Assembly: GCA_018607905.1 (NCBI GenBank)
Contig: JABBAP010000060.1
Span: 5,046 to 41,937 of the forward strand
Origin: Paracoccaceae bacterium
GTDB lineage: Bacteria; Pseudomonadota; Alphaproteobacteria; Rhodobacterales; Rhodobacteraceae
DNA: 36,892 nt
Direction: 5' to 3'
In this document: positions 4,489 through 33,093 of the stretch, in pieces
Numbering within the stretch: the first letter of the stretch is position 1
Layout of the letters: each line of letters begins with the position of its first letter
Position numbers and translations under genes: made by a program
The notes under the pieces: generated by a model
What the model was told of the DNA's origin: nothing
Databases searched by the model: none
The model's input: the letters and a program-made list of their open reading frames with translations, nothing else

Positions 4489-5573
4489 CCCATCATCCCC
4501 GCATTCAAAATTCCGCGCGGATCAAACTGCGCCCGCAACCCGTCTGAAACCCGCGCCAAAACACCAACCTCAGACTCAAACACAGGCCCAGCGCCAACAC
4601 CGCGCACCAGCGTCGCATGTCTAACCATCCCGTTCAGCGCACCGCGTACATCCGTCCCAATCGCAACCTCGGCCCAAACCAAACCACCGCCCCAATCATA
4701 CAACAACTTTGCGCCGTCCAGCGCGCCACCAACCTTTGGCCCATCCGAAGGCTTCACCGATATCCGCCACAAATCACCCGTTCCACCCGCAAATTTCACC
4801 CCGTCGCGCACCTCAATCCAATCCGTCGCATCGCTCACAGCAACATCCCCAAACGGGCGCAAAACCGCGCTCAACCGCTCGCCGCGATACGTCACAGAAT
4901 CCGTAAATCCCTCCAAACGCAGCATCGTTTTGCCACTGTCAGGATCATGCGCCGCCCCCGAAACCTCAAACGGTGATCCGAGCGCCGCCGACATCGCAGC
5001 AACCGCCGCCACATCATCCAACCCCGAAACCTCAACCGTCAACGTGGCCTCAATCCCCGGCAACACCTTAAACGCAACCTCGCTCAAAACCCCCAGCGTG
5101 CCCCACGATCCCGCCATCAACTTCACCAAATCATAACCCGTAACATTCTTCATCACGCGTCCACCGTTTTTGATGATATCACCGCGCCCATCGACAAACC
5201 GCACCCCGATCAAACTGTCGCGACACGCCCCTGCCTGAATACGTCGCGGCCCCGAGATATTCGCCGCCACAACACCGCCAATCGTGCTCTCGCCCTCCGT
5301 TCCCAATATCGCACCGTGCAACATCGGCTCAAACGGCAACCGCTGATTTTCCACTTTCAGCGCCGCCTCAATCTCGCGCAACGGCGTTCCCGCTCCCGCC
5401 ACAATCGTCAGCGCGCCTGGCTCATACAGCGATATCCCAGACAGCCCAACGGTGGACAATACCTCGCCCGAAGCTCGCCCCACAGGCCGCGTCCCACCCC
5501 CAACAATCCGCAATGGCCCCGCGGCCCCACGCACCATCTCACTCAACTCAACTTCAGTTTCAGGTTTCATCAT
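4485..5573 (-). CDS. glcE: Glycolate oxidase FAD-binding subunit GlcE
   Basis: This 362-aa product is the shorter FAD-binding subunit of glycolate oxidase. The N-terminal half carries the PCMH-type FAD-binding fold: RIVGGGTRPVGR (about residues 22-33), a YEPGALTIVAGAGTPL segment, then GGVVAANISGPRRIQAG with CRDSLIGVRFVDG, and KNVTGYDLVKLMAGSWGTLG. These are the usual GlcD/GlcE family blocks. The C-terminus ends in DPRGILNAGMMG, the standard RGxLNPG-like tail. It sits 57 bases after glcD and overlaps glcF by 4 bases. Cofactor and complex assignment follow from the family. Confidence 0.94.
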   Translation of the reverse strand: MMKPETEVELSEMVRGAAGPLRIVGGGTRPVGRASGEVLSTVGLSGISLYEPGALTIVAGAGTPLREIEAALKVENQRLPFEPMLHGAILGTEGESTIGGVVAANISGPRRIQAGACRDSLIGVRFVDGRGDIIKNGGRVMKNVTGYDLVKLMAGSWGTLGVLSEVAFKVLPGIEATLTVEVSGLDDVAAVAAMSAALGSPFEVSGAAHDPDSGKTMLRLEGFTDSVTYRGERLSAVLRPFGDVAVSDATDWIEVRDGVKFAGGTGDLWRISVKPSDGPKVGGALDGAKLLYDWGGGLVWAEVAIGTDVRGALNGMVRHATLVRGVGAGPVFESEVGVLARVSDGLRAQFDPRGILNAGMMG

Positions 5574-5630
5574 TTTCTTCTGGCCTCAAATATTCTGGGG
5601 GAGCGTGTAACGCGGGGGCAAAGCCCCAAA

Positions 5631-7070
5631 TCACTCGGCCGCAATCCGCCGCGCTTGCGTCACACCAAGCGGAAACACTTTCGATGGATTCAACAACCAA
5701 GCAGGGTCAAACACATCCTTCACCCGCAACTGCGCCTCCATATCCACCGCGTCAAACTGCGCATGCATCAGATCGCGCTTTTCCACACCAACACCGTGTT
5801 CGCCCGTCAAACAGCCACCAACCTCAACACACAGCTTCAAAATCTCCGCGCCCATCGCCTCGCATTTTTCCAGATCGCCGTCTTTGTTGGCATCAAACAG
5901 GATCAGCGGGTGCATATTTCCGTCGCCTGCATGAAACACATTGCCAACGTCCAGCCCGTATTCCTCCGAAAATTGTCTAATCCGCTTCAAAACATATGGC
6001 AGCTCGGACACGGGGATCGTGCCATCCAAACACATGTAATCGTTGATCTGCCCCATCGCCCCAAACGCCGATTTACGCCCCAACCAAATCGCAGCACTCT
6101 CTTCTTCGCTCGCACTTTCGCGAAATTCTACAGGGTTATGTTTGGCCGCAATTTCGCGGATCAAGCCCAACTGCATATCAATCTCGGCCTCTGATCCCTC
6201 CACCTCGATGATCAGCACCGCCTCGCACTCAGGATATCCAGCCTTCGCGTGCTTCTCGACCACTTCCAAAACCTTCTGGTCCATAAATTCAATCGCCACG
6301 GGCAACACACCCGCCTTGATGATGTCCGAAACGCAGGCCCCCGCCACCTCATTGCTGTCAAACCCAACCAGCGCAGGGCGCGCGCCCTCAGGCTTGTGCA
6401 AAATCCGCAGCGTGGCCTCTGTCACCACACCCAATTGCCCCTCGGATCCGCAAATCAGCCCCAGCAAATCCAGCCCTCCAGCATCCAAATGCCCACCACC
6501 GATTTCCGTCACTGTCCCGTCCATCAAAACCATCGTCACACCCAACAGGTTATTCGTCGTCACCCCGTATTTCAAACAATGCGCCCCGCCCGAATTCATC
6601 GCAACATTGCCCGCAATCGCACAGGCCAGCTGGGATGACGGATCAGGCGCGTAAAAGAAATCCATCTCTTCTACCGCACCTGTCACGCTCAGATTTGTGC
6701 GTCCAGATTGCACCCGAATGTAGCGATCCGCGTAATTGGTTTCGATCACGCCGTTCAACCGCGCCACGCCGAGGATCACACAATCCGCCGTGGGCAACGC
6801 GCCCCCTGCCAGCGATGTCCCCGATCCACGCGGCACAACAGGCACACCCATCGCGTGACACACTTTCAAAACCGCAGAAACCTCCTGCGTACTGCTCGGC
6901 AAAACAGCCGCCAACGGCGGGCATTTATACGCGGTCAGCGCGTCACATTCGTACACACGGGTTTCGTGAGGCTCGTGGATCACCGCATCCATCGGCAACA
7001 CGCCTTGCAACCGCGCAACAATATCGGCTTTGCGCGACAAAACCCGCGCATCTGGCATCGGCATTTCCAT
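5631..7070 (-). CDS. glcD: Glycolate oxidase FAD-linked subunit GlcD
   Basis: This 479-aa FAD-linked oxidase catalyses oxidation of glycolate (or lactate) to the 2-oxo acid. The FAD-binding half shows VVPRGSGTSLAGGALPT (about residues 75-91), a Y-x-R-V-Q-S-G segment, PDPSSQLACAIAGNVAMNSGG and GLICGSEGQLGVVTEATLRI. The C-terminal half has the FAD-linked oxidase blocks GNVFHAGDGNMHPLILFD, GGCLTGEHGVGVEKRDLM and a tail LLNPSKVFP. Its length is typical. The ATG at 7070 is preceded by GAGGA at a good distance. It is the first gene of glcD-glcE-glcF-GNAT. A dyad TTGGT-N11-ACCAA (7094-7114) in the divergent promoter region may bind a regulator. Confidence 0.95.
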   Translation of the reverse strand: MEMPMPDARVLSRKADIVARLQGVLPMDAVIHEPHETRVYECDALTAYKCPPLAAVLPSSTQEVSAVLKVCHAMGVPVVPRGSGTSLAGGALPTADCVILGVARLNGVIETNYADRYIRVQSGRTNLSVTGAVEEMDFFYAPDPSSQLACAIAGNVAMNSGGAHCLKYGVTTNNLLGVTMVLMDGTVTEIGGGHLDAGGLDLLGLICGSEGQLGVVTEATLRILHKPEGARPALVGFDSNEVAGACVSDIIKAGVLPVAIEFMDQKVLEVVEKHAKAGYPECEAVLIIEVEGSEAEIDMQLGLIREIAAKHNPVEFRESASEEESAAIWLGRKSAFGAMGQINDYMCLDGTIPVSELPYVLKRIRQFSEEYGLDVGNVFHAGDGNMHPLILFDANKDGDLEKCEAMGAEILKLCVEVGGCLTGEHGVGVEKRDLMHAQFDAVDMEAQLRVKDVFDPAWLLNPSKVFPLGVTQARRIAAE

Positions 7071-7093
7071 GATGATTCCTCAATTTCGCTAAT

Positions 7094-7114
7094 TTGGTAA
7101 AATAATATGACCAA
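7094..7114. promoter_or_regulatory. Dyad TTGGT-N11-ACCAA in the glcD/DUF599 divergent promoter region
   Basis: Perfect 5-bp half sites at 7094-7098 and 7110-7114 flank an AT-rich 11-base core. The position, 24-44 bases upstream of the glcD start, suits an operator. The spacing is longer than the usual GntR/FadR-type TGGTnnnACCA and nearer a LysR-type T-N11-A arrangement. No regulator gene is adjacent. Confidence 0.4.
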
Positions 7115-7176
7115 TCCACAAAATAACAACAGATTTATGGCCTGACAGCCCCGACACCCTGCGTTAAACCAGCCCT

Positions 7177-7875
7177 ATGAACACACTGCTGCCAGAGATC
7201 CTCGTCCATTTCACCCTGCTCGACGCCTTTGGTGTCGGCGCACTCGTTCTCGCTTGGCTCGGCAGCACCGCGATAATTGAACGTAAGAACGCCAAAAACC
7301 CATCCACCCACATGTTGATGGAATCCTACCGCGAACGCTGGATGGTGCAAATGGTCACCCGCCAACCGCGCATTTTCGACTCCGCCGTCCTCGCCATCAT
7401 GCGCCAAGGAGCAACCTTCTTCGCCTCTTCCTGCATGATCGCCATCGGCGGGTGTGTCGCGCTGTTGGGCGGGGCAGACCAACTGACCATGTTCGCCAGC
7501 GACCTTGCCAACACCCCCGTCGCCCCGAAAATAGTCTGGGAGGTCAAAATCCTCCTCCTCATGGTTTTCCTCGCCAATGGGTTCCTCAAATTTGTCTGGT
7601 CCGTGCGCCTGTTTGGCTATTGCGCCATCGTCATGGCCTCCACCCCCAACGACGCCAACGACGAAACCGCCTATCCCACCGCCACCAAAGCCGCCGAAAT
7701 CGCAAACCACGCCGCACGCTCCTTTAACCGTGGCATGCGCTCCGTCTATTTCACCATTGCCGCGTTAACATGGTTGCTGGGCGCACCTGCGTTAATCATC
7801 GCCACTTTGGTCACCGTGACGCTGATCTATCGGCGCGAATTCAATTCCCGCACCCGCATCGCACTGGCAAGCTAA
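7177..7875 (+). CDS. DUF599 family membrane protein
   Basis: This 232-aa protein has about four hydrophobic segments, near residues 15-35, 77-98, 122-145 and 190-215. It has the DUF599 look: an N-terminal TM, a polar stretch MLMESYRERWMVQMVTR (about 46-62) carrying the conserved arginines, and an internal NPWxx-free loop followed by KFVWSVRLFGYCAIVMA. DUF599 proteins are inner-membrane proteins without a known function. It is divergent from glcD with a gap of about 106 bases. No strong ribosome-binding site precedes the ATG. Nothing ties it to glycolate metabolism other than position. Confidence 0.85.
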   Translation: MNTLLPEILVHFTLLDAFGVGALVLAWLGSTAIIERKNAKNPSTHMLMESYRERWMVQMVTRQPRIFDSAVLAIMRQGATFFASSCMIAIGGCVALLGGADQLTMFASDLANTPVAPKIVWEVKILLLMVFLANGFLKFVWSVRLFGYCAIVMASTPNDANDETAYPTATKAAEIANHAARSFNRGMRSVYFTIAALTWLLGAPALIIATLVTVTLIYRREFNSRTRIALAS

Positions 7876-7906
7876 CGGCCCACGCCCCACCAAATGCCAA
7901 TTTAAG

Positions 7907-7927
7907 AACCTGTGACAAACCGCACTG
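7907..7927 (+). promoter_or_regulatory. Shared upstream element, copy 1
   Basis: A 21-base segment, core GTGACAAACCGCACTG at 7912-7927, matches 19 of 21 bases with a segment at 9814-9834. It lies about 140 bases ahead of the 331-aa gene. It may be a -35-like region or an operator; no clear -10 was seen at 17 bases. Confidence 0.5.
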
Positions 7928-8069
7928 CGCGCACAGCGTTGTCCGTTTAACCTGCCACTATCAAAACACCAAAACTGGCGCTGCCGTTGACGATTCCCAT
8001 TGGTCCGAAACAGGCGTCAAGTTTTTGGAAATTTTCTGATTTAGGAACACAGCCTGAAAGGAGAATACA

Positions 8070-9065
8070 ATGGAGGCAACTTTTCAAGGTGCTGCACGAC
8101 CGCCCAGCCGAACACCGAAAACAAAGAAACCTGTCCGCATCATCCCAAACTGGCCGCCAAGCGGGGCCATCGCAGCACGAATTGCGAACAACGGCAATTT
8201 TTGGACCCATGCCCGTTCCGTTGGGCTCGAAAATCCGTGGGATTTGATTATTTTCAACTTCCAAACCGAAGATCCACTCGAAGTGAACTGGTATTTGCAA
8301 AAGGCAGTTGGGTGCTGGCTCGTCGGTCCCGCTGGTAATTTTGATTTTCAAGATGCTCTGACAAATGACGGCAAAGACGGCCTCATTTACATCCCACGCA
8401 ATGGCTGGAGACCGCCCGCGTCCTTTAAAAAGGGATCAGGCGCTGGAACGTTTATCATGGGTGTCCGCCATTCCGTCGCGGCAATTCTTCGGGATCTATC
8501 GGTCAAAATGCCAACCATCGCGTATGGCGCAACTGTTATGCGACCACAAGATTATCGAACCATTGCAGACCTTATTGATACAAATGTGGTATCCATAGAA
8601 ATCGACCCTGGGCTTGTTGGAAATGGCGGTTATAGCCCCGAAGACAAAGCAATAATTCTGAAACATATGCCGAGGATTGGAAATGCCAAGCACGCGGCCT
8701 CAATCGCCAACGAGGCCGTTCATGTCATCACCCACTATCGCGAAATCCCGCATGACGTTTTGCGAAATGAATACGTTTCTACTGTTGCGGGCGCCATCGC
8801 GATGGGCGTGACAAGCGAGCGTGTCTTGAACGAAAAAGTGAACCCCACAGATCATGAAAATTGGGGGTATTATTATTCCGGATGGGTGTGGATCAATCTG
8901 CTAAAACCAAAAGGAATTTGGCACTTACACCTCACTCAGCTCGACCAACAATTTGAACATCCTAATAATTCAACAACGCCGAATGCGTTCGCTGCATTGA
9001 AAGATTCAATGCGCGAAAACTATGGCAAAAAGGCAGGAACCACAAAAATACCACTGTGGGACTAG
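8070..9065 (+). CDS. Uncharacterised 331-aa protein with a degenerate HExxH-like motif
   Basis: I do not recognise this gene by name. The N-terminus is basic and proline-rich (about residues 8-32) with no signal peptide or TM segment. Residues 32-66 have a LysM-like feel (IAARIANN, ENPWDLIIFNF), followed by EVNWYLQKAVGC (about 71-82) and GLIYIPRNGW. The C-terminal half has a strand GGYSPEDKAIIL, then a helix with N214-E215-A-V-H218 and later E234 in RNEYVSTVAGA. That spacing matches gluzincin-like HExxH...E peptidases of secreted or effector proteins, with the first His replaced by Asn, so it may be inactive or use another ligand set. Start at 8070 is supported by AAAGGAGA. An upstream element is shared with the 61-aa gene at 9889. 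Function unknown. Confidence 0.8.
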   Translation: MEATFQGAARPPSRTPKTKKPVRIIPNWPPSGAIAARIANNGNFWTHARSVGLENPWDLIIFNFQTEDPLEVNWYLQKAVGCWLVGPAGNFDFQDALTNDGKDGLIYIPRNGWRPPASFKKGSGAGTFIMGVRHSVAAILRDLSVKMPTIAYGATVMRPQDYRTIADLIDTNVVSIEIDPGLVGNGGYSPEDKAIILKHMPRIGNAKHAASIANEAVHVITHYREIPHDVLRNEYVSTVAGAIAMGVTSERVLNEKVNPTDHENWGYYYSGWVWINLLKPKGIWHLHLTQLDQQFEHPNNSTTPNAFAALKDSMRENYGKKAGTTKIPLWD

Positions 9066-9140
9066 AATATCCGTTGCTCCCCTTTCCTTGAACTCCAGCC
9101 CCAAAGAACTATGCTTCTTCACTCTGGAAAGGACCAACCG

Positions 9141-9767
9141 ATGAAAACCGACAAAACCTCACGCCGTCGCCTGCTCGCTGGAATGGCAGGGGTTTTGGGC
9201 GCTTCGACCTTCGCCAGCAAAACCGCCGCAGCCGTCCTAACGCCTTCTGCATCTGAGGGCCCTTTTTACCCCCTGCCGTCGATGCGCACGCCGGACATCG
9301 ACAATGATTTGGTCAAAATCACGGGTCTGGTACAAGGCGCGGGCGGAGAGGTCTTCACCCTGCGCGGCACGATCACAAATCGCGACGGACACCCACGCGT
9401 CGGCCACCGGATCGAGATTTGGCAATGCGATTTGGATGGCAATTACCAGCACCCAAACGATCCGCGCAGCGCCAACTTTGACCCCGCCTTCCAAGGATTC
9501 GGCCACGACATCACCGATCAGAACGGCGCCTACGTCTTTCGCACCATCAAACCAGAGGTCTATCCCGGCCGCACACCCCACATCCACGTCAAGATTTTTG
9601 ACGGAGCCTCCGAGCTGCTCACCACGCAAATTTACGTCAAAGGCGACCCAGGAAACCCCCACGACAGCCTGTTCAAACGCATGTCAAAGGCCCACGCCGA
9701 CGCCGTTTCAATGGTATTTGTAAAAGGCGAGACAGGCCCAGAAGCGACGATCAACATCATCATCTGA
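9141..9767 (+). CDS. Exported intradiol ring-cleavage dioxygenase family protein
   Basis: This 208-aa protein belongs to the protocatechuate/catechol intradiol dioxygenase fold, which cleaves catechol rings between the hydroxyls using Fe(III). The four expected ligands are visible: Tyr102 in DGNYQHP, Tyr141 in VYPGRTPHIH, His147 and His149. An SEGPFYPLP segment (about 38-46) is also typical. Unlike cytosolic PcaG/PcaH it starts with a twin-arginine signal, SRRRLLAG followed by a hydrophobic stretch to about residue 31, so it is probably exported folded. Start at 9141 is preceded by AAAGGA; the frame to 9111 has no such support. No other aromatic-catabolism gene is nearby, so the substrate is unknown. 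Confidence 0.87.
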   Translation: MKTDKTSRRRLLAGMAGVLGASTFASKTAAAVLTPSASEGPFYPLPSMRTPDIDNDLVKITGLVQGAGGEVFTLRGTITNRDGHPRVGHRIEIWQCDLDGNYQHPNDPRSANFDPAFQGFGHDITDQNGAYVFRTIKPEVYPGRTPHIHVKIFDGASELLTTQIYVKGDPGNPHDSLFKRMSKAHADAVSMVFVKGETGPEATINIII

Positions 9768-9813
9768 CCCTACCCGTTGGCCACGATTTCCACAGAAATT
9801 CGAAAAACTTCAA

Positions 9814-9834
9814 AACCCGTGACAAATCGCACTG
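9814..9834 (+). promoter_or_regulatory. Shared upstream element, copy 2
   Basis: A 21-base segment, core GTGACAAATCGCACTG at 9819-9834, differs from copy 1 (7907-7927) at only two positions. It is about 55 bases ahead of the 61-aa gene. If GTGACA is a -35, the hexamer 17 bases on is CATTAC, a weak -10. Confidence 0.5.
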
Positions 9835-9888
9835 TGGTGCGCATTACCGCGATCTAGTCTGACCTTAGCAACAGCAAAGGAACACGAC

Positions 9889-10074
9889 ATGGCCGATGAA
9901 TTTGAATTTCGCAGCACGAAAAGCACTGACCCAGAAGAAACGTATTTAGAATTCGAACTTAAGAACGTGACAGTTTCGAGTTACAACACCGGCAGCAGCA
10001 CGGAGAGCAAACCTGTTGATGAGTTCCACGCAAAGGAAACCGCGCCAGATTTCTTCGACGACTTTTTATTCTAA
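9889..10074 (+). CDS. 61-aa protein resembling the C-terminal strands of Hcp
   Basis: The ATG follows AAAGGA at a good distance, and the frame ends before a strong terminator at 10117-10148, so this is a convincing small gene. The segment TYLEFELKNVTVSSYNTGSS (about residues 18-37) strongly recalls the late strands of Hcp, the hexameric tube protein of type VI secretion, where a YL..TLK.V.VSS.STGGS pattern is typical. The product is far shorter than Hcp (about 160 aa) and lacks the N-terminal barrel half. It ends in an acidic, aromatic tail FFDDFLF. No tss/vgrG genes are in the window. It could be a remnant, a domesticated fragment or chance similarity. It shares an upstream element with the 331-aa gene at 8070. 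Confidence 0.7.
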   Translation: MADEFEFRSTKSTDPEETYLEFELKNVTVSSYNTGSSTESKPVDEFHAKETAPDFFDDFLF

Positions 10075-10116
10075 GCAATCTCCCCCAAGAATGTGTTTTT
10101 TGATGCACGTTCGATC

Positions 10117-10148
10117 GAAGCGGTGACGTCTCTCCCCGTCACCGCTTC
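10117..10148. terminator. Strong hairpin terminator between convergent genes
   Basis: An 11-bp perfect stem (GAAGCGGTGAC at 10117-10127, GTCACCGCTTC at 10138-10148) with a 10-nt loop lies 43 bases after the 61-aa gene and about 47 bases before the stop of the opposite-strand operon. It probably serves both directions. The downstream U-tract is weak. Confidence 0.7.
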
Positions 10149-10194
10149 CAAATCTTCTCAACAAACACGATATTTTTGCCCGCGGACGGCGGCG

Positions 10195-12276
10195 CTACCG
10201 CCCCTCAAAGCGCCATGCCGCAACCATCAACCCCGCCACCAGCATCAGTAAAACCCAAGCAGGCAGCACAGGGGTCTGGCGAATATCCGTCGCCAAATAG
10301 GCATTGCGCGGTGTCACGCCCAACCAGCCACGCCCCGCCGCAGATCGCCCTGCACGCACACTGCGCAATCGGGGCTCGCTAACGTCTTCCAACCGCAACA
10401 CACCACCGCCCGTGGCCGTCAAAATCGGCTCCAGAATATCCGCGCTCGCCATTGTCTGTTCAAATTCGCGCGGCGCAGTTGGGCCAACGGCAATCACCGC
10501 ATCCAGCTCGCCGTCGCTTAGCCGATACAGCCCGTTTTCTTCGCCTTCAAACTCCGCTGTCCAACGCCCCGGCGACGCCTCGCTTGTTTCCAACTCCACC
10601 ACGTTTCCATCTGGGCCCGTCACGCTTATCGCGCCACGTTCGGGCGCCAGTGAGCGCCGTGTCACCGTCACCGTATTTCCCTGAACCACCGCCGAAATGC
10701 GTTCTTCTTCCAGCTCGGGTTCTTTCATCGTCCAATGGGCCAAACGGCGCAGCATTTCCAACTGCGGGCCGCCCCCTTCAAACCCACGCGACCACAGCCA
10801 TGCATGATCTGACAACAACATCGCAATGCGGCCTTCATCCACGCGGTCCAGCACCAACAACGGCTTGCCATCAGCCCCCGTCATCACAACGTGGCCCTTG
10901 CTTGCCTCGGTATCAATCAGGCGGAACCAACGCCCCCAACCGGGCGTGCCATCCTCCGCCGTCGGGTTTGGCGCGAAGGTATCCAACCCCTCTGTCACGG
11001 GATGTCGCTGCCCCAATTCCGAAATCATCGGCGTGAACCCGCGCTCAATCACCTGCGCCGTTGGCTTGGCGGGCAACACCTCGTTTAGCGGCGTGCGCGC
11101 AATGCTCTCCACACCCCCGAACGCAGGGCCAGAGGCCACTAAAACCGCGCCCCCACGTCGCACATAATCCGCAACATTCGCCATGTAGCGATTGGGCAAA
11201 ATCCCGCGACGGCGATAGCGATCAAAGATGATCAGATCAAACTCGTCGATCTTTTCCAGAAACAATTCCCGCGTCGGAAACGCAATCAACGACAGCTCGC
11301 GCACAGGCACGCCGTCTTGTTTATCAGGGCTACGCAGGATGGTGAAATGCACCAAATCCACCGCTGTGTCCGATTTCAGCAAATTGCGCCACGTGCGTTC
11401 CCCAGCGTGCGGTTCGCCCGAAACCAGCAGCACCCGCAACCGATCCCGCACGCCGTTCACGGATAAAACCGCACCATTGTTGCGATCCGTCAACTCGCCC
11501 TCTTCGGGCACAACCTGAAACTGCAACACATTCAATCCACCGTGGGGCAGCGTTAGCGGCAGCTCAAATTGTCGCCCAACCTCCACCACAAATTCCTTTG
11601 CCGCGTCCCCATCAATGGAAATGCGCAGTTTGGCTGACCCCGCCACGGCCGCAGGCACCGCGCCTTGATCTTCGACCCGCAAAAACAACGTCACAGGCTC
11701 GCCCACAATCGCAAACGCAGGCGCATTCGTGATCACCAATCGGCGGTCCCAATCATCGTTTTCGCCCGTCAAAACCACATGAACAGGTGCGGGAAACGCC
11801 TCCAGCATCTTGGAATCGTGTACCTGCCCGTCCGTCACCAAAATCGCACCCGCGATACGGCTTTCGGCCACTTCACTTGCCGCTTTCGCCAACGCGGTCA
11901 GGATCATCGAGCCATCATCCGCTGCATTTGGATCGTTCTCAACCTCAACCACACGGGTTTCAAAATCTTTGAGCGAACCAATCTCCGCTTGCAGCGAAGC
12001 AACACCTTTTTCGATCTGCGCAGGGCGCACGTCAACCGATTGGCTTTCTGTTTTATCGACAACAACAAAAACGATATTGGACAGGTTTTCACGTTCTTCT
12101 TGGCGAAACACAGGCTGCGCCAATGCGGCCATCAAAACGGCCAATCCCGCCAATCGCAACCACCAGCCAGAAAGCCCGCGCCAAATCGCCAGCAGCACAA
12201 AAAGCACCGCAATCGCGGCGCAAACGATCAATACAGGCTGCGGAATAAGCGGCGTAAAGGCGATATCGAAATCCAT
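10195..12276 (-). CDS. Large membrane-anchored protein with glutamine-amidotransferase-like domain
   Basis: This 693-aa protein has two N-terminal TM helices (about residues 14-32 and 37-56), a large soluble region and a C-terminal TM helix (about 668-687). The first soluble part resembles a VWA-like fold (NIVFVVVDKTESQSVD, and AILVTDGQVHD). A later block, LRVLLVSGEPHAGERTWRNLL through DLIIFDRYRRRGILP and YVRRGGAVLVASGPAF, has the shape of a class I glutamine-amidotransferase-like fold, but no catalytic Cys is seen at the expected elbow. It starts one base after the stop of the DUF4159 gene, so it is the last gene of the MoxR operon. The family is usual in alphaproteobacteria and its role is unknown, presumably an envelope complex with its neighbours. 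Confidence 0.85.
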   Translation of the reverse strand: MDFDIAFTPLIPQPVLIVCAAIAVLFVLLAIWRGLSGWWLRLAGLAVLMAALAQPVFRQEERENLSNIVFVVVDKTESQSVDVRPAQIEKGVASLQAEIGSLKDFETRVVEVENDPNAADDGSMILTALAKAASEVAESRIAGAILVTDGQVHDSKMLEAFPAPVHVVLTGENDDWDRRLVITNAPAFAIVGEPVTLFLRVEDQGAVPAAVAGSAKLRISIDGDAAKEFVVEVGRQFELPLTLPHGGLNVLQFQVVPEEGELTDRNNGAVLSVNGVRDRLRVLLVSGEPHAGERTWRNLLKSDTAVDLVHFTILRSPDKQDGVPVRELSLIAFPTRELFLEKIDEFDLIIFDRYRRRGILPNRYMANVADYVRRGGAVLVASGPAFGGVESIARTPLNEVLPAKPTAQVIERGFTPMISELGQRHPVTEGLDTFAPNPTAEDGTPGWGRWFRLIDTEASKGHVVMTGADGKPLLVLDRVDEGRIAMLLSDHAWLWSRGFEGGGPQLEMLRRLAHWTMKEPELEEERISAVVQGNTVTVTRRSLAPERGAISVTGPDGNVVELETSEASPGRWTAEFEGEENGLYRLSDGELDAVIAVGPTAPREFEQTMASADILEPILTATGGGVLRLEDVSEPRLRSVRAGRSAAGRGWLGVTPRNAYLATDIRQTPVLPAWVLLMLVAGLMVAAWRFEGR

Positions 12277-12277
12277 G

Positions 12278-15034
12278 CTACTGCCCCAACCGATCCAACA
12301 GCGCAGGCACGTGCACCTGATCTGATTTGTAATTGCCCGTCAGCACATGCATCACCAAATTCACGCCAAAGCGGATGGCAATTTCGCGCTGCCGCTCGCC
12401 TTGTGATCCGCGCCCAACAGGAAACAAAAACCGCCCGTTTTCGCCAATCGCCCACGCACTCGCCCAGTCATTGCCACCAATCACAACGGGGGTCACACCG
12501 TCGTTCAAATTGCGAAACGGCATACCTTCTAACTGCTCTGCATCAGGGGGCGCGGCCTCAACCCAAACATCGGCATTGGCATAGCGGCCTGGAAAATCTT
12601 GCAGCAAATAAAACGTTCGCGTCAAAACGTGATCTTGGGGCACAGGTTCCAGCGACGGAATATCCAAACTGCGCGCAATCGTCTGCAACCGCTTGCCGTT
12701 GGGCGTTCCACCAGAAAGACTGCGGCCAATATTGGCGTCGCGCGTGTCAAACAGGATCATCCCGCCACCGCGCAAAAACGCATTCACCCGCTCCATCGCG
12801 CGGTCCGAAGGCACGTTTTGCGTGTCCGAAACGGGCCAGTACAAAAACGGATACAGCGATAATTCACCCGTTTCCAAATTCACCGCAACAGGGGCAACGG
12901 GCTCGATGCTTGTACGGCGAAACAGTTCCGTCGAAAGCCCCAGCAACCCCGCGCGCGAAACCTCATCCAGCTTTGAATTTCCCGTTTCAACATAGGCCAA
13001 TACCGTATTGTTCGCCGCGTTCAAAATCGCCGCCTCATCCTGCGCATCTGCAGGCTGAACAGGCAAAACCGCAAGCGCCAATGCCGCGATCGCACCGCGC
13101 ATCCACAAGCGCCCGCCAACCAGCAACGTCGCCAAAACATCTATGCACAGCAACGCCAGCGCGGCCATCAACAACCACGCCTGCAACGGCTGTTCCTCTG
13201 ATCGCGTCAACGACAAAAAGTTCGTTCCGAGCGGCCAACCTGCCGCCTCCAACACGCGATCCTTGGCCACTGCATTCAGCGCCACACGCCGATCCCCGCT
13301 CACGTAAACGCCGGGCGGCATATCGTTGCCAAACACGCCGCTTGCCAACCGCGCGCCGTCCACCCCCGCCAACGCAGGGGCATCGCGCAACACGCCAAAT
13401 CCATCCAAAACCTGCTCAGGAACCCAGATCGTTCCTTCCAGCTCTGCCGCGTCCAAATCAGACGTTCGCGCCGAGATTGCCAAGCGTTCCAGCAACTGCA
13501 CAAACAGGCCCGACAACGGCAGCGATGACCATTCCGCATTCGCCGTGACATGGAATAAAACTACGCGCCCCGCACCCTGATCTTTGCCCGTCACCAACGG
13601 CGTTCCATCCGCAAGATTAGCCAAAACCCGCTCTGCCAAATTTGGGTCAGGCTGCGCCATGACCTGGCTTTCAACAAAAACGTCATTTGGCACATCTAAC
13701 CCGAAAAACGGGCTGTTTTCAGGGAACTCTTGCAGCGCCTTGGGCGATCCCCAGCTCATCGCGCCGCCAACATTTCGCCCACCAGCGCGCAATCGCACAG
13801 GTAGCAATGGATCCTCGCTCGATTGGCCGATTCCACTCGCGGCCAGTCGTGGCCCCGCAAAGCGAACCAACATGCCGCCGCCTTCGACCCATTCTAGAAC
13901 TGCGCGGTTTTCTTGCGTCGACATTTCACCAACATCCGCCAAAATAATCACATCAGGATTGGCCTGCAAACTGTCTGTGAAATCCGCTTCGATCACATCC
14001 GCGGTCGGAACCAACGCCTTGCGCAAAAAATGCAACGGCGAGACCAGAACCGCGCCCTCTTGCTCGGTTCCGCCACCAATCAACGCCACTTTGCGCCGCT
14101 GAATGCTGTCATCCGTCACCACAACCGCACCCGCAGATCGCACACCATCCATTACCACACGCTTCACCCGATTGCGCAGCTCGGACGGCAATTCAATCGC
14201 CAACTCCACCTCGCGCGCACCTTCATCAAGCGCACCCTCAGCCCGCGCCAGTGATCGCGTAATCCCAGCAGGGTCAGGCCCTTCTGCCAGCACCGAAAAC
14301 GCACCAGAACCTGCAGCATCCAACCGCAATGCCGTCGTGCTCAGCGCCCCACTTTCAATGCCAATGCCGCGCAATGCAAAAACGGTTCCATCCGCCTCAA
14401 CCACACTCACGTCACCCTTTTCACCAAACGCCGCCATCAACTCCGCGCGACCCTCCCGCGCCAATCCATCCGACAACCACAGCGTTTCAAACGCCTCCGC
14501 CGTACCTGCCGCGCCGATCCAATCCGTGTAATTCGGCTCCCAAGCATTCGGCTCCAAGCCCTCGGCCTTGCTAATCCAATCACCCGCATTCACAAAATTC
14601 AGCGGCTTTTCCCCGCGCGGCCCGTCAGACAGCAAAACCACCGTCACAGGGCGCCCGTCCTGCACCGCAAATTGCAGCACCTCGTTCACCTTGTCCTGCC
14701 GCGCAGCCCAGCTTTGCGCGCTCGCCCAACTGCCATCCATCGTGATCAACAGCGGTGCGTTTCCCGCCACGCGATCCGTCGGGTTCAACACGGGTTGCGC
14801 AAACGCCAAAATCGCCGCTGCGATCGCGGCCATACGTAACAACAACAACCACCAAGGCGTGCGATCAGGGGTCGTTTCGCGATCTTCAAGCCCCAGCAGC
14901 AACGAAACCGCAGGGAACCGTCGCCGCAAGGGCGCAGGCGGCACGGCGCGCAGCAACCACCACAGGATCGGCAACGCCAGCAATCCCAGCAACAACGCAG
15001 GCACCAAAAATCCGAGCGATCCAAATGCAATCAT
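12278..15034 (-). CDS. BatA-like N-terminal domain plus DUF4159 membrane protein
   Basis: The 918-aa product begins MIAFGSLGFLVPALLLGLLA, the aerotolerance-regulator (BatA) N-terminal segment, with a TM helix, the PLRRRFPAV motif and a second TM helix around residues 60-80. A VWA-like region follows (LLITMDGSWASAQ, VTVVLLSDGPRGE). Two more TM helices lie near residues 625-665. The C-terminal DUF4159 domain starts around residue 690 with NTVLAYVETGN, then LYPFLYWPVSD, FLRGGGMILFDTRDAN and a final EIAIRFGVNLVMHVLTGNYKSDQVH. The ATG at 15034 overlaps the DUF58 stop as ATGA; the longer frame to 15106 runs inside DUF58 and is rejected. It likely forms a membrane complex with the MoxR ATPase. Confidence 0.92.
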   Translation of the reverse strand: MIAFGSLGFLVPALLLGLLALPILWWLLRAVPPAPLRRRFPAVSLLLGLEDRETTPDRTPWWLLLLRMAAIAAAILAFAQPVLNPTDRVAGNAPLLITMDGSWASAQSWAARQDKVNEVLQFAVQDGRPVTVVLLSDGPRGEKPLNFVNAGDWISKAEGLEPNAWEPNYTDWIGAAGTAEAFETLWLSDGLAREGRAELMAAFGEKGDVSVVEADGTVFALRGIGIESGALSTTALRLDAAGSGAFSVLAEGPDPAGITRSLARAEGALDEGAREVELAIELPSELRNRVKRVVMDGVRSAGAVVVTDDSIQRRKVALIGGGTEQEGAVLVSPLHFLRKALVPTADVIEADFTDSLQANPDVIILADVGEMSTQENRAVLEWVEGGGMLVRFAGPRLAASGIGQSSEDPLLPVRLRAGGRNVGGAMSWGSPKALQEFPENSPFFGLDVPNDVFVESQVMAQPDPNLAERVLANLADGTPLVTGKDQGAGRVVLFHVTANAEWSSLPLSGLFVQLLERLAISARTSDLDAAELEGTIWVPEQVLDGFGVLRDAPALAGVDGARLASGVFGNDMPPGVYVSGDRRVALNAVAKDRVLEAAGWPLGTNFLSLTRSEEQPLQAWLLMAALALLCIDVLATLLVGGRLWMRGAIAALALAVLPVQPADAQDEAAILNAANNTVLAYVETGNSKLDEVSRAGLLGLSTELFRRTSIEPVAPVAVNLETGELSLYPFLYWPVSDTQNVPSDRAMERVNAFLRGGGMILFDTRDANIGRSLSGGTPNGKRLQTIARSLDIPSLEPVPQDHVLTRTFYLLQDFPGRYANADVWVEAAPPDAEQLEGMPFRNLNDGVTPVVIGGNDWASAWAIGENGRFLFPVGRGSQGERQREIAIRFGVNLVMHVLTGNYKSDQVHVPALLDRLGQ

Positions 15035-15921
15035 CGTGCTGGCCCCGCAATCGCATTGTGAATCCACATCAGCGCGCTCTGCGCTGGCTGATCCGTATGA
15101 TGGCACAGATACATCCAGCCTGTACGCCGCGCCAGCGCCTCTAACTGGTCTTTGCGCTCTGCCAAGCGTTCCAGATAATCATCGCGCAACGCTTTGGCAC
15201 GACGTGTTTCAAAGCTCAGACCACCGCCCATGCTTTCAAAAATCGTACGCCCATCAAAGGGAAAACTTTCCTCGCTCGGGTCTAGCACCTGCACCAAACA
15301 TCCCTGCACCCGCTGATCCGCCGCACGGCTTAACGCTGCGATCACGCTCTCCCAGTCGCCCAGAAAATCGCTAATCAGCAGCGCCCGATTGCCCCGGACC
15401 ATTTCTTTGTTCGGCGGCACACCGTAATCATCGGATGCAGTTTCAACCAACCGCATCGCCATCTTGGTCAACTGACCACGGCCATGTTTGGGGGGTTGCG
15501 GGTCTTCCATCAACCCAACGCTTTCGCCTCCCTTCGCTAGCAAAATCGCCGCTGCCAAGCCCAGTATCCGCGCGCGCTCGCCCTTTAGCGGTAAATCCTT
15601 GTCGCCGCGATATTGCATGGATGCCGAACGATCGACCCACAAATGCACAGCCTGCAAGTTCTGCCATTCCATCTGGCGCACAAAATGCGCATCGGCCCGC
15701 GCCGATCTGCGCCAATCAATTTCGCGCAGCGGATCACCCGCCGTGGCTGGTCGGTATTGCCAAAACTCATCCCCCGGCCCTGCACGTCTGCGCCCATGGG
15801 CACCCAAAGAAATCGTCGCCGCCAATTGGTCCGCGCCCGCCATAAGCGCAGGAAATCCGACCGCGGCCTCCTCGGCGTCACGGCGTAATTGGTCTGGCGT
15901 TATTTGGGCGGCGTCATTCAC
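15031..15921 (-). CDS. DUF58 domain protein
   Basis: This 296-aa soluble protein carries the DUF58 signature: GDEFWQYRPATAGDPLREI followed by DWRRSARADAHFVRQ (about residues 50-85). A VWA-like strand LWVDRSASMQYRG (about 94-106) follows, with the D-x-S-x-S part of a MIDAS metal site, and LLISDFLGDWE further on. DUF58 proteins are almost always encoded next to MoxR ATPases and are thought to be their clients or partners. It overlaps MoxR at its start (4 bases) and the DUF4159 gene at its end (4 bases), so the three are probably made together. The exact role is not established. Confidence 0.92.
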   Translation of the reverse strand: MNDAAQITPDQLRRDAEEAAVGFPALMAGADQLAATISLGAHGRRRAGPGDEFWQYRPATAGDPLREIDWRRSARADAHFVRQMEWQNLQAVHLWVDRSASMQYRGDKDLPLKGERARILGLAAAILLAKGGESVGLMEDPQPPKHGRGQLTKMAMRLVETASDDYGVPPNKEMVRGNRALLISDFLGDWESVIAALSRAADQRVQGCLVQVLDPSEESFPFDGRTIFESMGGGLSFETRRAKALRDDYLERLAERKDQLEALARRTGWMYLCHHTDQPAQSALMWIHNAIAGPAR

Positions 15922-16937
15922 GCGGCGGCCTCTGCCCCCATTGTTTGCGCAGTCAGGCGCGATATCAAATCAGCCAGTTTTTCGCCCCGTGCGCGTGCCG
16001 CAAAGCCCAGCGCCATACGGTGAATCAAAATCGGATGCGCCAGCGCAATCACATCATCCACAGACGGCGCAAGCCGCCCCTGCACCATCGCGCGCGCCCG
16101 CGTTGCCAACATAAACGCCTGCGCCGCACGTGGCCCTGGCCCCCAGCTGACCGCATCGCGCACAAAATCTGGCGCGGTTTCATCTTCGGGCCGCGCAGCA
16201 CGCACCAAATCCAAGATCGCCTCAACCACCGCATCACCAACGGGCATCCGTCGAACAGCCGCTTGCGCCGCTTGCAGCGTCTCTGGCGTGAACACTTCCT
16301 TGGCCTCTGCCTCATCCGCGCCCGTTGTCGCCAACAAGATATCGCGCTCCGTATCGCGGCTTGGAAAGCCCACATCAATCTGCAGAATAAACCGATCCAA
16401 TTGCGCCTCTGGCAACGGATAGGTGCCCTCCTGCTCAATCGGGTTTTGCGTCGCCAAAACATGGAACGGCGCGGGCAAATCATATTCCACCCCCGCGATT
16501 GTCACCTGTCGTTCCTGCATCGCTTGCAACAGGGCGGATTGGGTTCGTGGCGAGGCACGGTTAATCTCGTCTGCCATCAACAACTGGCTAAACACAGGGC
16601 CTTTCAAAAACCGAAACGCCCGCGCCCCATCATCATTGCTCTCTAAAACTTCCGATCCCAGAATATCCGCTGGCATCAAATCTGGCGTAAATTGCACGCG
16701 GTTGGTGTTAAGCCCGAACACTGTCCCCAATGTGTCGACCAGCCGCGTTTTCGCCAACCCCGGCGCACCAACCAACAACGCATGGCCACCACACAACAGC
16801 GCAACCATCGCATTTTCAACAACTTGTTCCTGTCCGATGATCCGTTTGGCGATCCACGCGCGGGAATTCCCCAACAGAACCGAGGCTTTATCAACCTCCT
16901 CCGCCAAACTTGCCAATTCGCTTGCATTCTGGGACAT
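15918..16937 (-). CDS. MoxR-family AAA+ ATPase
   Basis: This 339-aa ATPase has Walker A GAPGLAKT (residues 57-64), Walker B LLMADEINRASPRTQSALL (about 122-140), a sensor-like HVLATQNPIEQEGTYPLPEA segment and a C-terminal lid with SWGPGPRAAQAFMLATRARA. MoxR ATPases are chaperone-like and help assemble or activate VWA-domain protein complexes, which fits the three genes that follow. It is the first gene of the four-gene operon and is divergent from the DUF1285 gene with about 60-70 bases between them. No clear promoter hexamers were assigned. Confidence 0.95.
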   Translation of the reverse strand: MSQNASELASLAEEVDKASVLLGNSRAWIAKRIIGQEQVVENAMVALLCGGHALLVGAPGLAKTRLVDTLGTVFGLNTNRVQFTPDLMPADILGSEVLESNDDGARAFRFLKGPVFSQLLMADEINRASPRTQSALLQAMQERQVTIAGVEYDLPAPFHVLATQNPIEQEGTYPLPEAQLDRFILQIDVGFPSRDTERDILLATTGADEAEAKEVFTPETLQAAQAAVRRMPVGDAVVEAILDLVRAARPEDETAPDFVRDAVSWGPGPRAAQAFMLATRARAMVQGRLAPSVDDVIALAHPILIHRMALGFAARARGEKLADLISRLTAQTMGAEAAA

Positions 16938-28006: not shown

Positions 28007-29581
28007 TTAATCTGCAAACAAGAAAGGCGTATGCGCAATTTCGCGGGCCTTATCTTCGGTGACATCCATAAACGCAGAAATCTGCATCGTGTTTTCTTCG
28101 GGTTCATTGCGATCCGAGATGGAATAGAAATTCGGATAATTCCGATCCCGTACCGCGTTGCTCTCATAGGCGAAATCCATGCGGATCGTCGGCACGATGC
28201 GTTTGATCGTGTCCTCCGAACTAGTTGGCCCCGCCAGCCCCGTTCGTATCGCATGACCGCGCAAATACTCGTCGTCAAAACTACAGGCCAACTCCAACAT
28301 CCGCGTGGTGCAGCGATCCGAATAGAAATCCTCTAACAACTCCACATTTGCCGGGTCCGCACAGATCATCAGACGATCCGTGAAAGATCGCTCAAACAAC
28401 AACCGCATCACCGCGCGTCTATGGCGCGCGCGTTTTTCCAATGTGCGCTCAATGCCGCCCATATCGGGCATCGCCGTGTCTTGTTCATCAAACAAATAGG
28501 CATAGCTGCGAATGCCCGTGGCCTGTTCGGCTGCATGCACCAGTCGTTTAGCCACATGCCACTTTTTACACACCACAATCAGCAATTCGCGTTCCCGCCC
28601 AATCGTGCTTTCCCGCTCCCAGAACCGCGTTGCAAACCGCCGCCCTTCGCGCCCCCGCGTTGTTAGGAACTTGTGCAAAACGCGCCCTTCGTTGGTCAGG
28701 TTCAGCTCCACATCGCCGCCAGAATACAGCCGCCCCAGTTTGTCCTTCAGATCATGCGCCTCAGCCGAGATTTTGCGCGCAAACAGGCTGTCTTGGGACA
28801 ACAGGAAATCATATTGATCGTTAAAGAATGTCACCGGCATCCCGTAATCCGAAAACATCAGGAACGTCAGCGTGCGGTTTACGATTTCTTCTTTTGGCAC
28901 CAAATGCAGCACGACGGTCTGGAAAAATGTCTCATCAGGGATCCACGTGGTTTTGAAAAACTTGATCACATCTTTGCGCTCTTGCACAAATTTCAAAACC
29001 GCCTCGACCGTGCGACGGCGCAAACACCACCACTGTGACCCGATCTTCATGCTCAACCCTTTGGGCACTTCGCGTTTTAGCCCCAGCGTTTTTTGCAGTT
29101 TGTAAGTGTTGTAAAACAGTGCTTTGTTTTCGCGTTCGTTGAAAAAATGTCGGTAATGCAACCGATCCTCTTTCATCCCCGTCTTGATCCAATCACTTTC
29201 GAAAAAGTCATTGCATTCAATGAAATCGACGTCGTTTTCATCCAGAAAACGGTGGGTATAAGACGCGGGCTTAATTGCCATGCAATCGCCTGACACCATG
29301 TAAAAATGGGTCGCATCGGGAAACGCATCGTTTGCTGCTTTCATCGCATTCAGCGACCCTTGCACCAACGACCATTCGCCCCACCCACAACTAACACGTT
29401 TGGCAAAAACAACATTCGGATTATCCCCGAGCGCCGTGGTGATCTGCGCATAGGCCGCGCTGTCAGCACTCGCATCAAAGTGGATCGCGATACAATCGCC
29501 CACAGATGTCAGGCCCTCGGCCTGTTGAATGATCGCTTCAGGGTCTTTGTGACACAAAAGAATATAGGCAATTTTTGCCAT
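28007..29581 (-). CDS. Core-2/I-branching-type glycosyltransferase with DUF5927/DUF5928
   Basis: This 524-aa protein starts with a Branch-type glycosyltransferase domain (about residues 1-260): MAKIAYILLCHKDPEAI, then the ASADSAAYAQI region, RVSCGWGEWSLVQGSLNAM, FYMVSGDCMAI and the KIGSQWWCLRRRTVEAV stretch. Enzymes of this fold add beta-1,6-N-acetylglucosamine or xylose to a glycan. The rest (about 270-524) looks like the DUF5927/DUF5928 region common in Rhodobacteraceae copies, with RERELLIVVCKKWHVAKRL and MLELACSFDDEYLRGHAIRTG. No TM segment or signal peptide is present, so it acts in the cytoplasm, possibly at the membrane. It is divergent from a sulfotransferase gene across 156 bases, suggesting that a glycan is built and then sulfated. 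Confidence 0.87.
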   Translation of the reverse strand: MAKIAYILLCHKDPEAIIQQAEGLTSVGDCIAIHFDASADSAAYAQITTALGDNPNVVFAKRVSCGWGEWSLVQGSLNAMKAANDAFPDATHFYMVSGDCMAIKPASYTHRFLDENDVDFIECNDFFESDWIKTGMKEDRLHYRHFFNERENKALFYNTYKLQKTLGLKREVPKGLSMKIGSQWWCLRRRTVEAVLKFVQERKDVIKFFKTTWIPDETFFQTVVLHLVPKEEIVNRTLTFLMFSDYGMPVTFFNDQYDFLLSQDSLFARKISAEAHDLKDKLGRLYSGGDVELNLTNEGRVLHKFLTTRGREGRRFATRFWERESTIGRERELLIVVCKKWHVAKRLVHAAEQATGIRSYAYLFDEQDTAMPDMGGIERTLEKRARHRRAVMRLLFERSFTDRLMICADPANVELLEDFYSDRCTTRMLELACSFDDEYLRGHAIRTGLAGPTSSEDTIKRIVPTIRMDFAYESNAVRDRNYPNFYSISDRNEPEENTMQISAFMDVTEDKAREIAHTPFLFAD

Positions 29582-29623
29582 TGGTGCTGCCGCCCGCTTT
29601 TTGTACTGCTACCTCGTTACCCG

Positions 29624-29686
29624 TCTATCTTTAAAAATTGCCCCAATAAACACTTTTTCTTGGCAATCTGTTGTCTAAAAGGTAGA
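29624..29686. promoter_or_regulatory. Composite dyad in the divergent glycosyltransferase/sulfotransferase promoter region
   Basis: Inner arms ATTGCC (29637-29642) and GGCAAT (29662-29667) are nested inside imperfect outer arms TCTATCTTT (29624-29632) and AAAGGTAGA (29678-29686; one G-T mismatch). The element is midway between two divergent starts and could bind a shared regulator or form a leader hairpin. Confidence 0.4.
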
Positions 29687-29737
29687 TCATACGAACAGAC
29701 CAAAGCGCAAAAGCGCGGCAAAGCAGGAGTAGAGAGT

Positions 29738-30544
29738 ATGGGCTTACCAGGAACCTGGATGACCGAAAGCGAAAGCATGGCGTACCGCGTTGTGCCCAAA
29801 TGTGCGTGTTCGACCATCGGGCAAATCATGTTCTACTCCGATCATGGCCGCTTTTTTGATGGCGATATCCACGACAGCACCGAAGGGTTGCACAAGTGGT
29901 CTCAGGAACATTCCCAAGGCCCGATCACGGATCGTGTCACGGCCCAAGACACCTATACATTCACCTGCGTGCGCAATCCCTACACTCGTATCTTGTCGTC
30001 CTTTTTTGATAAAATTTGCGGCATTCAGCGCAACGGTAAACGCTATCGCGGCAACCTTGTACCAAACATTATCCGCAAATATGGCGTAGAAGTTGAGGGC
30101 GATTTCGATCAAATCCAATCCTTCCGCCGCTTCCTTTTGTTTGCGCGCGACACCATCAAATACCGCCGCCCGATGGACCCAGATATCCACTGGTCCGCGA
30201 TGGCAGGTCACGCGTCCACGCTGGTGATTAATGGTGGTAAATACGATAAAATTATCACAACCGAGAATTTCAAAGAGGGCATGAAAGACGTTTTGAAAAA
30301 CATCGAGGTCAAACACGACGTCGATGTCGACAACATGCCCCGCTTTAACGAATCCGAAGGCCACGGCCCAAAACGCGCCCACCCAGTGGAGGATTACTTC
30401 GACGATCTGTCCATGCACATGGTCTATGAAATCTACAAACGCGATTTCAACCTGTTCAAATACGACGCAACAGACCCCAGCCGCAAAGAAGCGCTAAGCG
30501 AGCCCGACATGGAAGAAATCTACGCTAAATTGGGCGATAATTAG
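29738..30544 (+). CDS. Sulfotransferase family 2 protein
   Basis: This 268-aa protein has the PAPS-binding blocks of the carbohydrate sulfotransferase (Sulfotransfer_2) family. The 5'-phosphosulfate loop is VVPKCACSTIG (about residues 18-28), with the P-K-C-x-C-S-T pattern of this branch. The 3'-phosphate strand-helix is TCVRNPYTRILSSF (about 75-88). It transfers sulfate from PAPS to a sugar hydroxyl; the acceptor is unknown. The start at 29738 is chosen for AGGAG 8 bases upstream; the longer frame from 29306 runs over the glycosyltransferase gene on the other strand. It is followed by a clear bidirectional terminator. Confidence 0.9.
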   Translation: MGLPGTWMTESESMAYRVVPKCACSTIGQIMFYSDHGRFFDGDIHDSTEGLHKWSQEHSQGPITDRVTAQDTYTFTCVRNPYTRILSSFFDKICGIQRNGKRYRGNLVPNIIRKYGVEVEGDFDQIQSFRRFLLFARDTIKYRRPMDPDIHWSAMAGHASTLVINGGKYDKIITTENFKEGMKDVLKNIEVKHDVDVDNMPRFNESEGHGPKRAHPVEDYFDDLSMHMVYEIYKRDFNLFKYDATDPSRKEALSEPDMEEIYAKLGDN

Positions 30545-30569
30545 GGCTAGTTAATCTTCGAGAAAATAC

Positions 30570-30597
30570 AAAAGCCGCGCTTATCAGTGCGGCTTTT
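30570..30597. terminator. Bidirectional rho-independent terminator
   Basis: AAAAGCCGC (30570-30578) and GCGGCTTTT (30589-30597) form a 9-bp stem with a 10-nt loop, followed by TCTTTG on the plus strand. On the minus strand the same stem ends in a T-rich run. It lies between the converging stops of the two sulfotransferases (30544 and 30614). Confidence 0.85.
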
Positions 30598-30613
30598 TCT
30601 TTGCTTGCGTCGC

Positions 30614-31258: not shown

Positions 31259-31266
31259 GCCTAAAC

Positions 31267-32166: not shown

Positions 32167-32227
32167 CTGGAAATTCCCAACTAAACTCACGGCATCTACC
32201 CACAACCGCTCACGTCAGGCAACACCC

Positions 32228-33091: not shown

Positions 33092-33093
33092 CC

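What the first reader, a model, noticed from the sequence alone, without database searches (positions are those of the whole stretch)
9889..10074. Solitary 61-aa protein that resembles the last strands of Hcp
Residues about 18-37 show the YL-x-x-x-L-K-x-V-x-VSS pattern plus TG/GS that marks the late beta-strands of the type VI secretion tube protein. The gene has a good ribosome site, its own terminator and an acidic aromatic C-terminus, so it looks maintained and not just a scar. No other type VI gene is in view. A stand-alone Hcp fragment could be a tube-capping, chaperone-like or immunity-like piece.
Basis: partly seen in the sequence, partly recalled or inferred. Interest (0 to 1): 0.7.

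Follow-up and report, generated by a model that had tools for sequence, protein, structure and literature searches.

The report
Stand-alone fragment of secretion tube protein
A marine bacterium with no detectable type VI secretion machine keeps a tiny 61-residue gene that looks like one piece of that machine's tube protein; a related species keeps the same gene in the same place, so it seems to be a maintained small protein of unknown job and not a scar.

Summary
Window 9889-10074 is an intact 61-residue gene whose only Pfam hit is Hcp: E 2.4e-4, 21.8 bits, under the 23.5 cut-off, profile positions 80-118 of 129. Against a profile of 21 Hcps, none found with this gene as query, it scores 20.1 bits; the best of 10,000 shuffles scores 9.5. 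A profile of 6 genus Hcps barely sees it. One orthologue exists: 62 residues, 49% identical, in an uncultured Amylibacter MAG, at the same site. The flanks of the two genomes match at about 80% DNA identity; the 2.4 kb between is replaced except for this gene and a short upstream element. Purifying selection is supported by this one pair (pN/pS 0.40, bootstrap 0.27-0.57). The host genome has no other Hcp and no TssC; the orthologue's genome has a T6SS. The AlphaFold model is too poor to use. Best reading: an Hcp-derived hairpin plus a new acidic, aromatic tail, kept as a small binding protein with unknown partner. It is not filed as an Hcp.

The parts
9889..10074 (+). 61-aa gene: Hcp-like segment (residues about 6-47) plus a new acidic/aromatic tail ending in the pattern PDFxDDFLF
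9876..9881 (+). ribosome-binding site AAAGGA, conserved in the orthologue
9811..9834 (+). 24-bp conserved upstream element (core ACCYGTGACAANNCNCACTG at 9815-9834), 87.5% identical before the orthologue; that BLAST match alone has E 0.23
7908..7927 (+). second match of the core element, before the 331-aa gene; no other match in this genome at up to 1 mismatch. The pattern was written from the three sites, so their exact fit is by construction
10117..10148 (+). 12-bp perfect hairpin after the gene, no T-tract; possible bidirectional terminator
   Evidence: not listed by the terminator scan
7786..10194 (.). variable interval between two conserved flanks; content differs between relatives
   Evidence: three of its four 500-bp blocks from 8000 to 9999 have lower GC (0.47-0.52) than any other block from 5000 to 13999 (0.54-0.61)
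8070..9065 (+). 331-aa neighbour with a match of the upstream element; relatives in genome G036; no Pfam or NCBIfam family
9141..9767 (+). intradiol dioxygenase-like protein with a Tat-like leader, between the 331-aa gene and the small gene
   Evidence: PF00775, E 1.6e-22; start codon and leader read by eye
7177..7875 (+). DUF599 gene, conserved left flank
10195..12276 (-). 693-aa gene, conserved right flank (its last 400 residues found in 26 of 33 genus genomes)

Best explanation
This is a small protein, probably cytoplasmic, derived from a type VI tube protein. It keeps one segment of about 40 residues from the C-terminal half of Hcp (the YLxxxLxNVxVSSY hairpin) and lacks the N-terminal 80 positions, including the inter-ring loop, and the last strand. 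In their place it has a new conserved acidic, aromatic tail. It should not be able to form a tube. The most likely mode of action is partner binding: the hairpin adds to an exposed strand or Hcp-binding surface of another protein, and the tail forms a second contact. It is probably expressed from its own conserved upstream element, and probably descends from the hcp of an orphan effector island at a site where genes are swapped. Shown: the gene, the Hcp likeness, the orthologue, the synteny, the selection on one pair and the absence of TssC and other Hcp in the host. Inferred: descent from Hcp (about 75-80%), location, promoter, the partner-binding mechanism (about 35%) and the orphan-island origin.
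For: PF05638 is the only Pfam family listed for either orthologue (up to E 10 and E 1), at overlapping profile positions 80-118 and 81-111. Profile of 21 Hcps not retrieved with it: 20.1 and 15.8 bits against best shuffles of 9.5 and 7.1; hhalign 94.7%. As a query over 394 family genomes its three best foreign hits are full-length Hcps, and 9 of the 19 foreign loci fetched (29 foreign rows) are Hcps; with the two-row profile over 389 relatives, 6 of 23 fetched foreign loci (25 rows), the best one included, partly the same genes. The same length, start and stop in two species, 30 invariant columns including TDPEETY and PDFxDDFLF, pN/pS 0.40. A conserved upstream element without further matches in four genomes. 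Same site in both genomes, everything between the flanks otherwise replaced.
Against: The match stays under Pfam's cut-off (21.8 of 23.5) and covers about 40 residues, a length at which convergent hairpins are possible. The profile of the 6 genus Hcps barely sees it. The profile search of solved structures found no Hcp. The second- and third-ranked foreign hits are not Hcps. The predicted structure has no strands, at useless confidence. Only two members are known, so 'maintained' rests on one pair. A 58-aa ORF in G114 reached 22.2 bits with the circular profile yet has no Pfam hit and no clear relative, a warning about short Hcp-like stretches found in very large searches. No partner is known.
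Confidence: 0.4

Rival explanations
1. Unrelated small acidic protein: the gene is real and selected, but the Hcp likeness is convergence on a common two-strand pattern.
For: Sub-cut-off score and short match; profile of the 6 genus Hcps gives 6.1 bits, rank 3 of 10,003; the G114 ORF shows that Hcp-like stretches occur; no Hcp among solved structures with the two-row profile; no strands in the low-confidence model.
Against: Both orthologues hit the same Hcp register, each above its own 10,000 shuffles; searches with the window protein retrieve Hcps at the top.
Confidence: 0.2
2. Decaying remnant of a lost hcp gene that happens to be open.
For: Host genome has no TssC and no other Hcp; the gene diverges much faster than its flanks (49% protein identity, against 90% over 400 residues of the right flank and 85% over 113 residues of DUF599).
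Against: pN/pS 0.40 with bootstrap 0.27-0.57, third-position differences 0.66 against 0.33 and 0.28; same start, stop, ribosome site and upstream element in two species; a new conserved tail that Hcp lacks.
Confidence: 0.15
3. Anti-T6SS decoy: it binds Hcp subunits, the cell's own or those injected by neighbours, and blocks their assembly, which would explain retention without a T6SS and fast divergence.
For: Carries an Hcp strand pair that could exchange into an Hcp subunit (inferred); retained in a genome without TssC; fast divergence.
Against: No binding data; the orthologue's genome has its own T6SS; of the 27 genus genomes without a TssC match, 26 lack the gene too, some of them incomplete.
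Confidence: 0.1
4. Adaptor or chaperone for a neighbouring cargo protein: the 187-aa ORF that starts about 24 nt downstream in G028, or the 331-aa protein with a match of the upstream element here.
For: Close same-strand spacing in G028; element match in the window; orphan hcp islands often carry effector genes (passage in PMC13098142).
Against: The two candidate cargos look unrelated and differ between the genomes; the 187-aa ORF has no family and no confident relative (best E 0.0013, not followed), and its model is unusable.
Confidence: 0.15

Closest known systems
Hcp / TssD, type VI secretion tube protein (Pfam PF05638, NCBIfam TIGR03344)
   Same: Residues 4-46 align to profile positions 80-118, the YLxxxLxNVxVSSYxT segment.
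   Different: 61 aa against about 160; the N-terminal 79 profile positions and the last strand have no counterpart; below the curated cut-off; has a new C-terminal tail; genome without TssC.
Orphan hcp islands (hcp genes away from a T6SS cluster, as defined in passages of PMC13098142)
   Same: Hcp-related gene alone in a variable gene site with varying neighbours.
   Different: Not a full-length hcp; no identified effector-immunity pair; no TssC in the window's own genome.
Full-length Hcp of the G028 T6SS (L061, 161 aa)
   Same: Same genome as the orthologue; the corresponding stretch there is EYMIITMTNVLVTSVATGGS.
   Different: Absent from the orthologue's 21 BLAST rows up to E 10 against 35 Hcps (the window protein's list was cut at 19 rows), so the small gene is not a recent copy of it.

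Membership tests
Hcp (PF05638) | Score at or above Pfam's gathering cut-off of 23.5 bits | tested here: not met
   21.8 bits, and 18.1 for the orthologue
Hcp (PF05638) | Whole barrel domain (129 profile positions) | tested here: not met
   only positions 80-118 match
Hcp (PF05638) | Sequence homology to the family over the part present | tested here: met
   20.1 bits against 9.5 for the best of 10,000 shuffles; hhalign 94.7%; weak with the 6-Hcp profile
Hcp (PF05638) | Extended loop that contacts the next ring (residues 40-56 in the Hcp1 of PMC4650826, passages read) | tested here: not met
   the aligned part starts at profile position 80, after that loop
Hcp (PF05638) | Hexameric ring formation | not testable with these tools
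   needs purified protein
Hcp (PF05638) | Late Hcp strand arrangement in the structure | tested here: inconclusive
   AlphaFold model pLDDT 54.3, no strands
Hcp (PF05638) | T6SS core genes in the genome | tested here: not met
   no TssC match in the window's genome, 95.88% complete; present in the orthologue's genome
Orphan hcp effector island | hcp next to an effector and its immunity gene | tested here: inconclusive
   neighbours are a 331-aa protein without family and a dioxygenase here, and a GNAT protein and a 187-aa ORF without family in G028

The most novel reading that the evidence does not exclude
A single hairpin of the T6SS tube protein has been domesticated as a free-standing 61-residue protein with a new tail, and it serves a bacterium that has no T6SS, for example by strand exchange with Hcp subunits that attackers inject. 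As far as my limited searches show, no stand-alone Hcp hairpin under selection has been reported.
Probability: 0.1. Interest if true: 0.75.

Novelty: new variant of a known kind. Interest (0 to 1): 0.45.

Why it matters
If the gene is truly Hcp-derived and works without the tube, part of a contractile weapon has been turned into a small binding protein, possibly a defence against that weapon. It would also give a 61-residue Hcp hairpin with which strand exchange and interference with tube assembly could be tested directly. If not, it is a caution about reading Hcp into short ORFs.

Tried and rejected
Structure route: AlphaFold of the small protein with its two-row alignment gave pLDDT 54.3 and no strands; I ran no fold search on it because a low-confidence model gives meaningless matches. 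The 187-aa ORF of G028, folded alone, gave pLDDT 33 and was dropped.

Second small-Hcp family: a 58-aa ORF in G114 looked like an exported peptide with the same Hcp stretch. It has no Pfam hit up to E 10. Among 284 genomes the foreign rows have E 0.006-0.1; I did not examine them, and I treat the ORF as chance.

Wider search for orthologues: plasmids, phages and viral contigs gave none; the first genome-contig scan gave none and the second gave the G028 contig. I looked at the 10 non-Hcp foreign loci and the 17 with tblastn (in some the best hit was not the original one). None is a convincing stand-alone relative; the nearest are a 74-aa frame in G046 (37% over 54 columns, with gaps) and a 37-aa frame at the edge of a G008 contig, which lies opposite a long ORF that reads like a solute-binding protein.

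The upstream element as a general promoter: rejected as genome-wide, since only its 3 source sites match in four genomes at up to 1 mismatch. At a looser setting (14 bases, up to 3 mismatches) the window holds 11 matches where 4.5 are expected, so looser likeness is common. No common -10 box was found by eye. Rfam found nothing over its gathering scores in 7000-11000.

Solved structures: a profile search with the two-row alignment gave only weak unrelated chains (best E 0.13), no Hcp.

First profile test rejected as main evidence for circularity and replaced, where the 15 plasmid Hcps were chosen by me from the 50 rows listed of 142 records, preferring environmental strains.

Full report
What is there. 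Window 9889-10074 (+) holds an intact 61-residue ORF with a good ribosome site. The protein is acidic (pI 4.1, 15 D/E against 5 K/R, 10 aromatic residues). After it lies a perfect 12-bp hairpin at 10117-10148 without a T-tract, which the terminator scan does not list.

Is it Hcp-like? PF05638 is the only Pfam family listed up to E 10 (E 2.4e-4, 21.8 bits, cut-off 23.5; residues 4-46 on positions 80-118). In the whole host genome this is the only PF05638 match at E 0.001 (20.7 bits). NCBIfam's Hcp model gives 12.6 bits, E 0.095. I built three profiles. The first, of 20 Hcps, gave 30.1 bits against 10.7 for the best of 10,000 shuffles, but 14 of the 20 had been fetched with the small gene or its alignment as query. 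The second, of the 6 distinct Hcps that PF05638 found in the genus, gave only 6.1 bits, rank 3 of 10,003. The third, of those 6 plus 15 plasmid Hcps found with the G028 Hcp, gave 20.1 bits against 9.5, and for the orthologue 15.8 against 7.1 for its own 10,000 shuffles; hhalign gave 94.7%, P 6.3e-8. In reverse, the small protein as query over 394 family genomes found full-length Hcps as its three best foreign hits, and 9 of the 19 foreign loci fetched, of 29 foreign rows, are Hcps. With the two-row profile over 389 relatives the best foreign hit is an Hcp (E 0.013), the next two are not, and 6 of 23 fetched foreign loci are Hcps. I take descent from Hcp as about 75-80% likely.

What part of Hcp? 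The aligned part covers the end of the strand before, and the strand of, YLxxxLxNVxVSSYxT (strand names from general knowledge of the fold). The N-terminal half, the loop that contacts the next ring (residues 40-56 in the Hcp1 of PMC4650826, passages read) and the last strand with its NF motif (visible in the Hcps) have no counterpart. The tail PDFxDDFLF stands there instead and is conserved. It should not be a working tube subunit (inferred).

Relatives. One orthologue: G028, contig CALLAV010000213.1, an uncultured Amylibacter MAG, 62 aa, 49% identical. 2 of 33 genus genomes have the gene. Beyond the genus, none of the foreign loci fetched (394 genomes; 389 genomes) is a convincing stand-alone relative; 10 and 2 weak rows without a locus were not examined. 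Plasmids, phages and viral contigs have none. Both carriers are draft assemblies (76 contigs, 95.88% complete; about 350 contigs, 72% complete).

Synteny (genes named by eye). Of 26 genus loci with the right-flank gene, that gene is followed by the FAD-linked oxidase in 13 and by DUF599 in 4; 6 have other neighbours; the remaining 3 are the window's genome, G028 and G020. tblastn finds the small gene in 2 of the 26 loci. G020, as close as G028 (90% on the right-flank gene), has DUF599, a small reverse-strand ORF and then the right flank, with no small gene. G028 has DUF599, a similar reverse ORF, a GNAT gene, the small gene, a 187-aa ORF about 24 nt later, then the right flank. The window has DUF599, a 331-aa gene, a dioxygenase, the small gene, then the right flank. 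DNA comparison of G028 and the window breaks at 7785 and resumes at 10195; between these only the small gene (two pieces, E 0.002 and 0.019) and 9811-9834 (E 0.23) align at E up to 1. Whether G020 lost the gene or the others gained it is unresolved.

Upstream element. A pattern written from three sites, ACCYGTGACAANNCNCACTG, matches only those three at up to one mismatch in four genus genomes: before the small gene here, before the orthologue and before the 331-aa gene here (7908-7927); 0 in G020 and G012; reversed-pattern control 0. At a looser setting the window alone holds 11 matches of a 14-base version against 4.5 expected, so the 331-aa site is the less certain one. It suggests shared control of the small gene and the 331-aa gene. 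The regulator is unknown.

Selection. Between the two orthologues pS is 0.82 (saturated), pN 0.33, pN/pS 0.40 (bootstrap 0.27-0.57), position differences 0.33, 0.28, 0.66. The flanks have pN/pS 0.11 (400 residues of the right flank) and 0.15 (113 residues of DUF599) at 90% and 85% identity. So the gene is constrained but evolves several times faster than its flanks. This rests on one pair.

T6SS context. The window's genome has no TssC match and no other Hcp. G028 has TssA-like, TssB, TssC, Hcp, TssF/G-like and ClpV-like genes (names beyond TssC and Hcp read by eye). TssC is in 6 of 33 and Hcp over cut-off in 7 of 33. In the window, Pfam scans of 22 other ORFs show no T6SS gene.

Structure.

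Mechanism. I commit to a small partner-binding protein made from an Hcp hairpin and a new tail. In G028 the partner could be the cell's own Hcp or the 187-aa product; in the window it must be something else, such as the 331-aa protein or foreign Hcp. The tail's acidic, aromatic end with a final F reminds me of the tip of single-stranded DNA-binding protein; this is recalled and untested. All of this paragraph is inference.

Literature. Searches for truncated, mini, partial, shortened, fragment or pseudogene Hcp found no report of a stand-alone Hcp hairpin: one listing; passages of PMC4379610, concern a built mutant; four listings; passages of PMC6907878, PMC7733977 and PMC12396204 are primers, cloning and secretion level; PMC3925238 seen in the listing only; 10 listed of 217; two listings. 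Amylibacter with type VI gave one listing. PMC13098142 (12 of 28 passages shown) describes orphan hcp islands; the word 'truncated' does not occur in it. The library lacks most subscription papers.

Verdict. Interest is moderate: two members, one pair for selection, no partner.

Noticed in passing
window 8070-9065: 331-aa protein without Pfam or NCBIfam family. Two relatives in G036 (40% and 35% identity) share an N-terminal part ending in ENPWDxIIxNF that reads like LysM by eye, and one has HEAVH where this one has NEAVH, so it may be a degenerate metallopeptidase.
   Followed up: partly
window 7908-7927 and 9815-9834: Two matches of a 20-bp element before two genes 1.9 kb apart; no others at up to 1 mismatch in this genome.
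   Followed up: partly
L023 3378-3938: 187-aa ORF about 24 nt after the orthologue, rich in Gly and Cys, no family and no confident relative.
   Followed up: partly
window 7786-10194: Gene-swapping site between DUF599 and the 693-aa gene: different content in G000, G028 and G020; in G012, G002 and G004 the two genes are about 50 nt apart.
   Followed up: partly
window 10195-16937: Reverse-strand run of the 693-aa gene, a BatA/DUF4159 protein, DUF58 and a MoxR-type AAA protein.
   Followed up: no
window 29306-33708: Three sulfotransferase-like genes close together beside a Branch/DUF5928 glycosyltransferase.
   Followed up: no
L025 1429-1917: Full-length Hcp in G027 with no TssC found in that genome (81% complete): a possible orphan hcp.
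   Followed up: no
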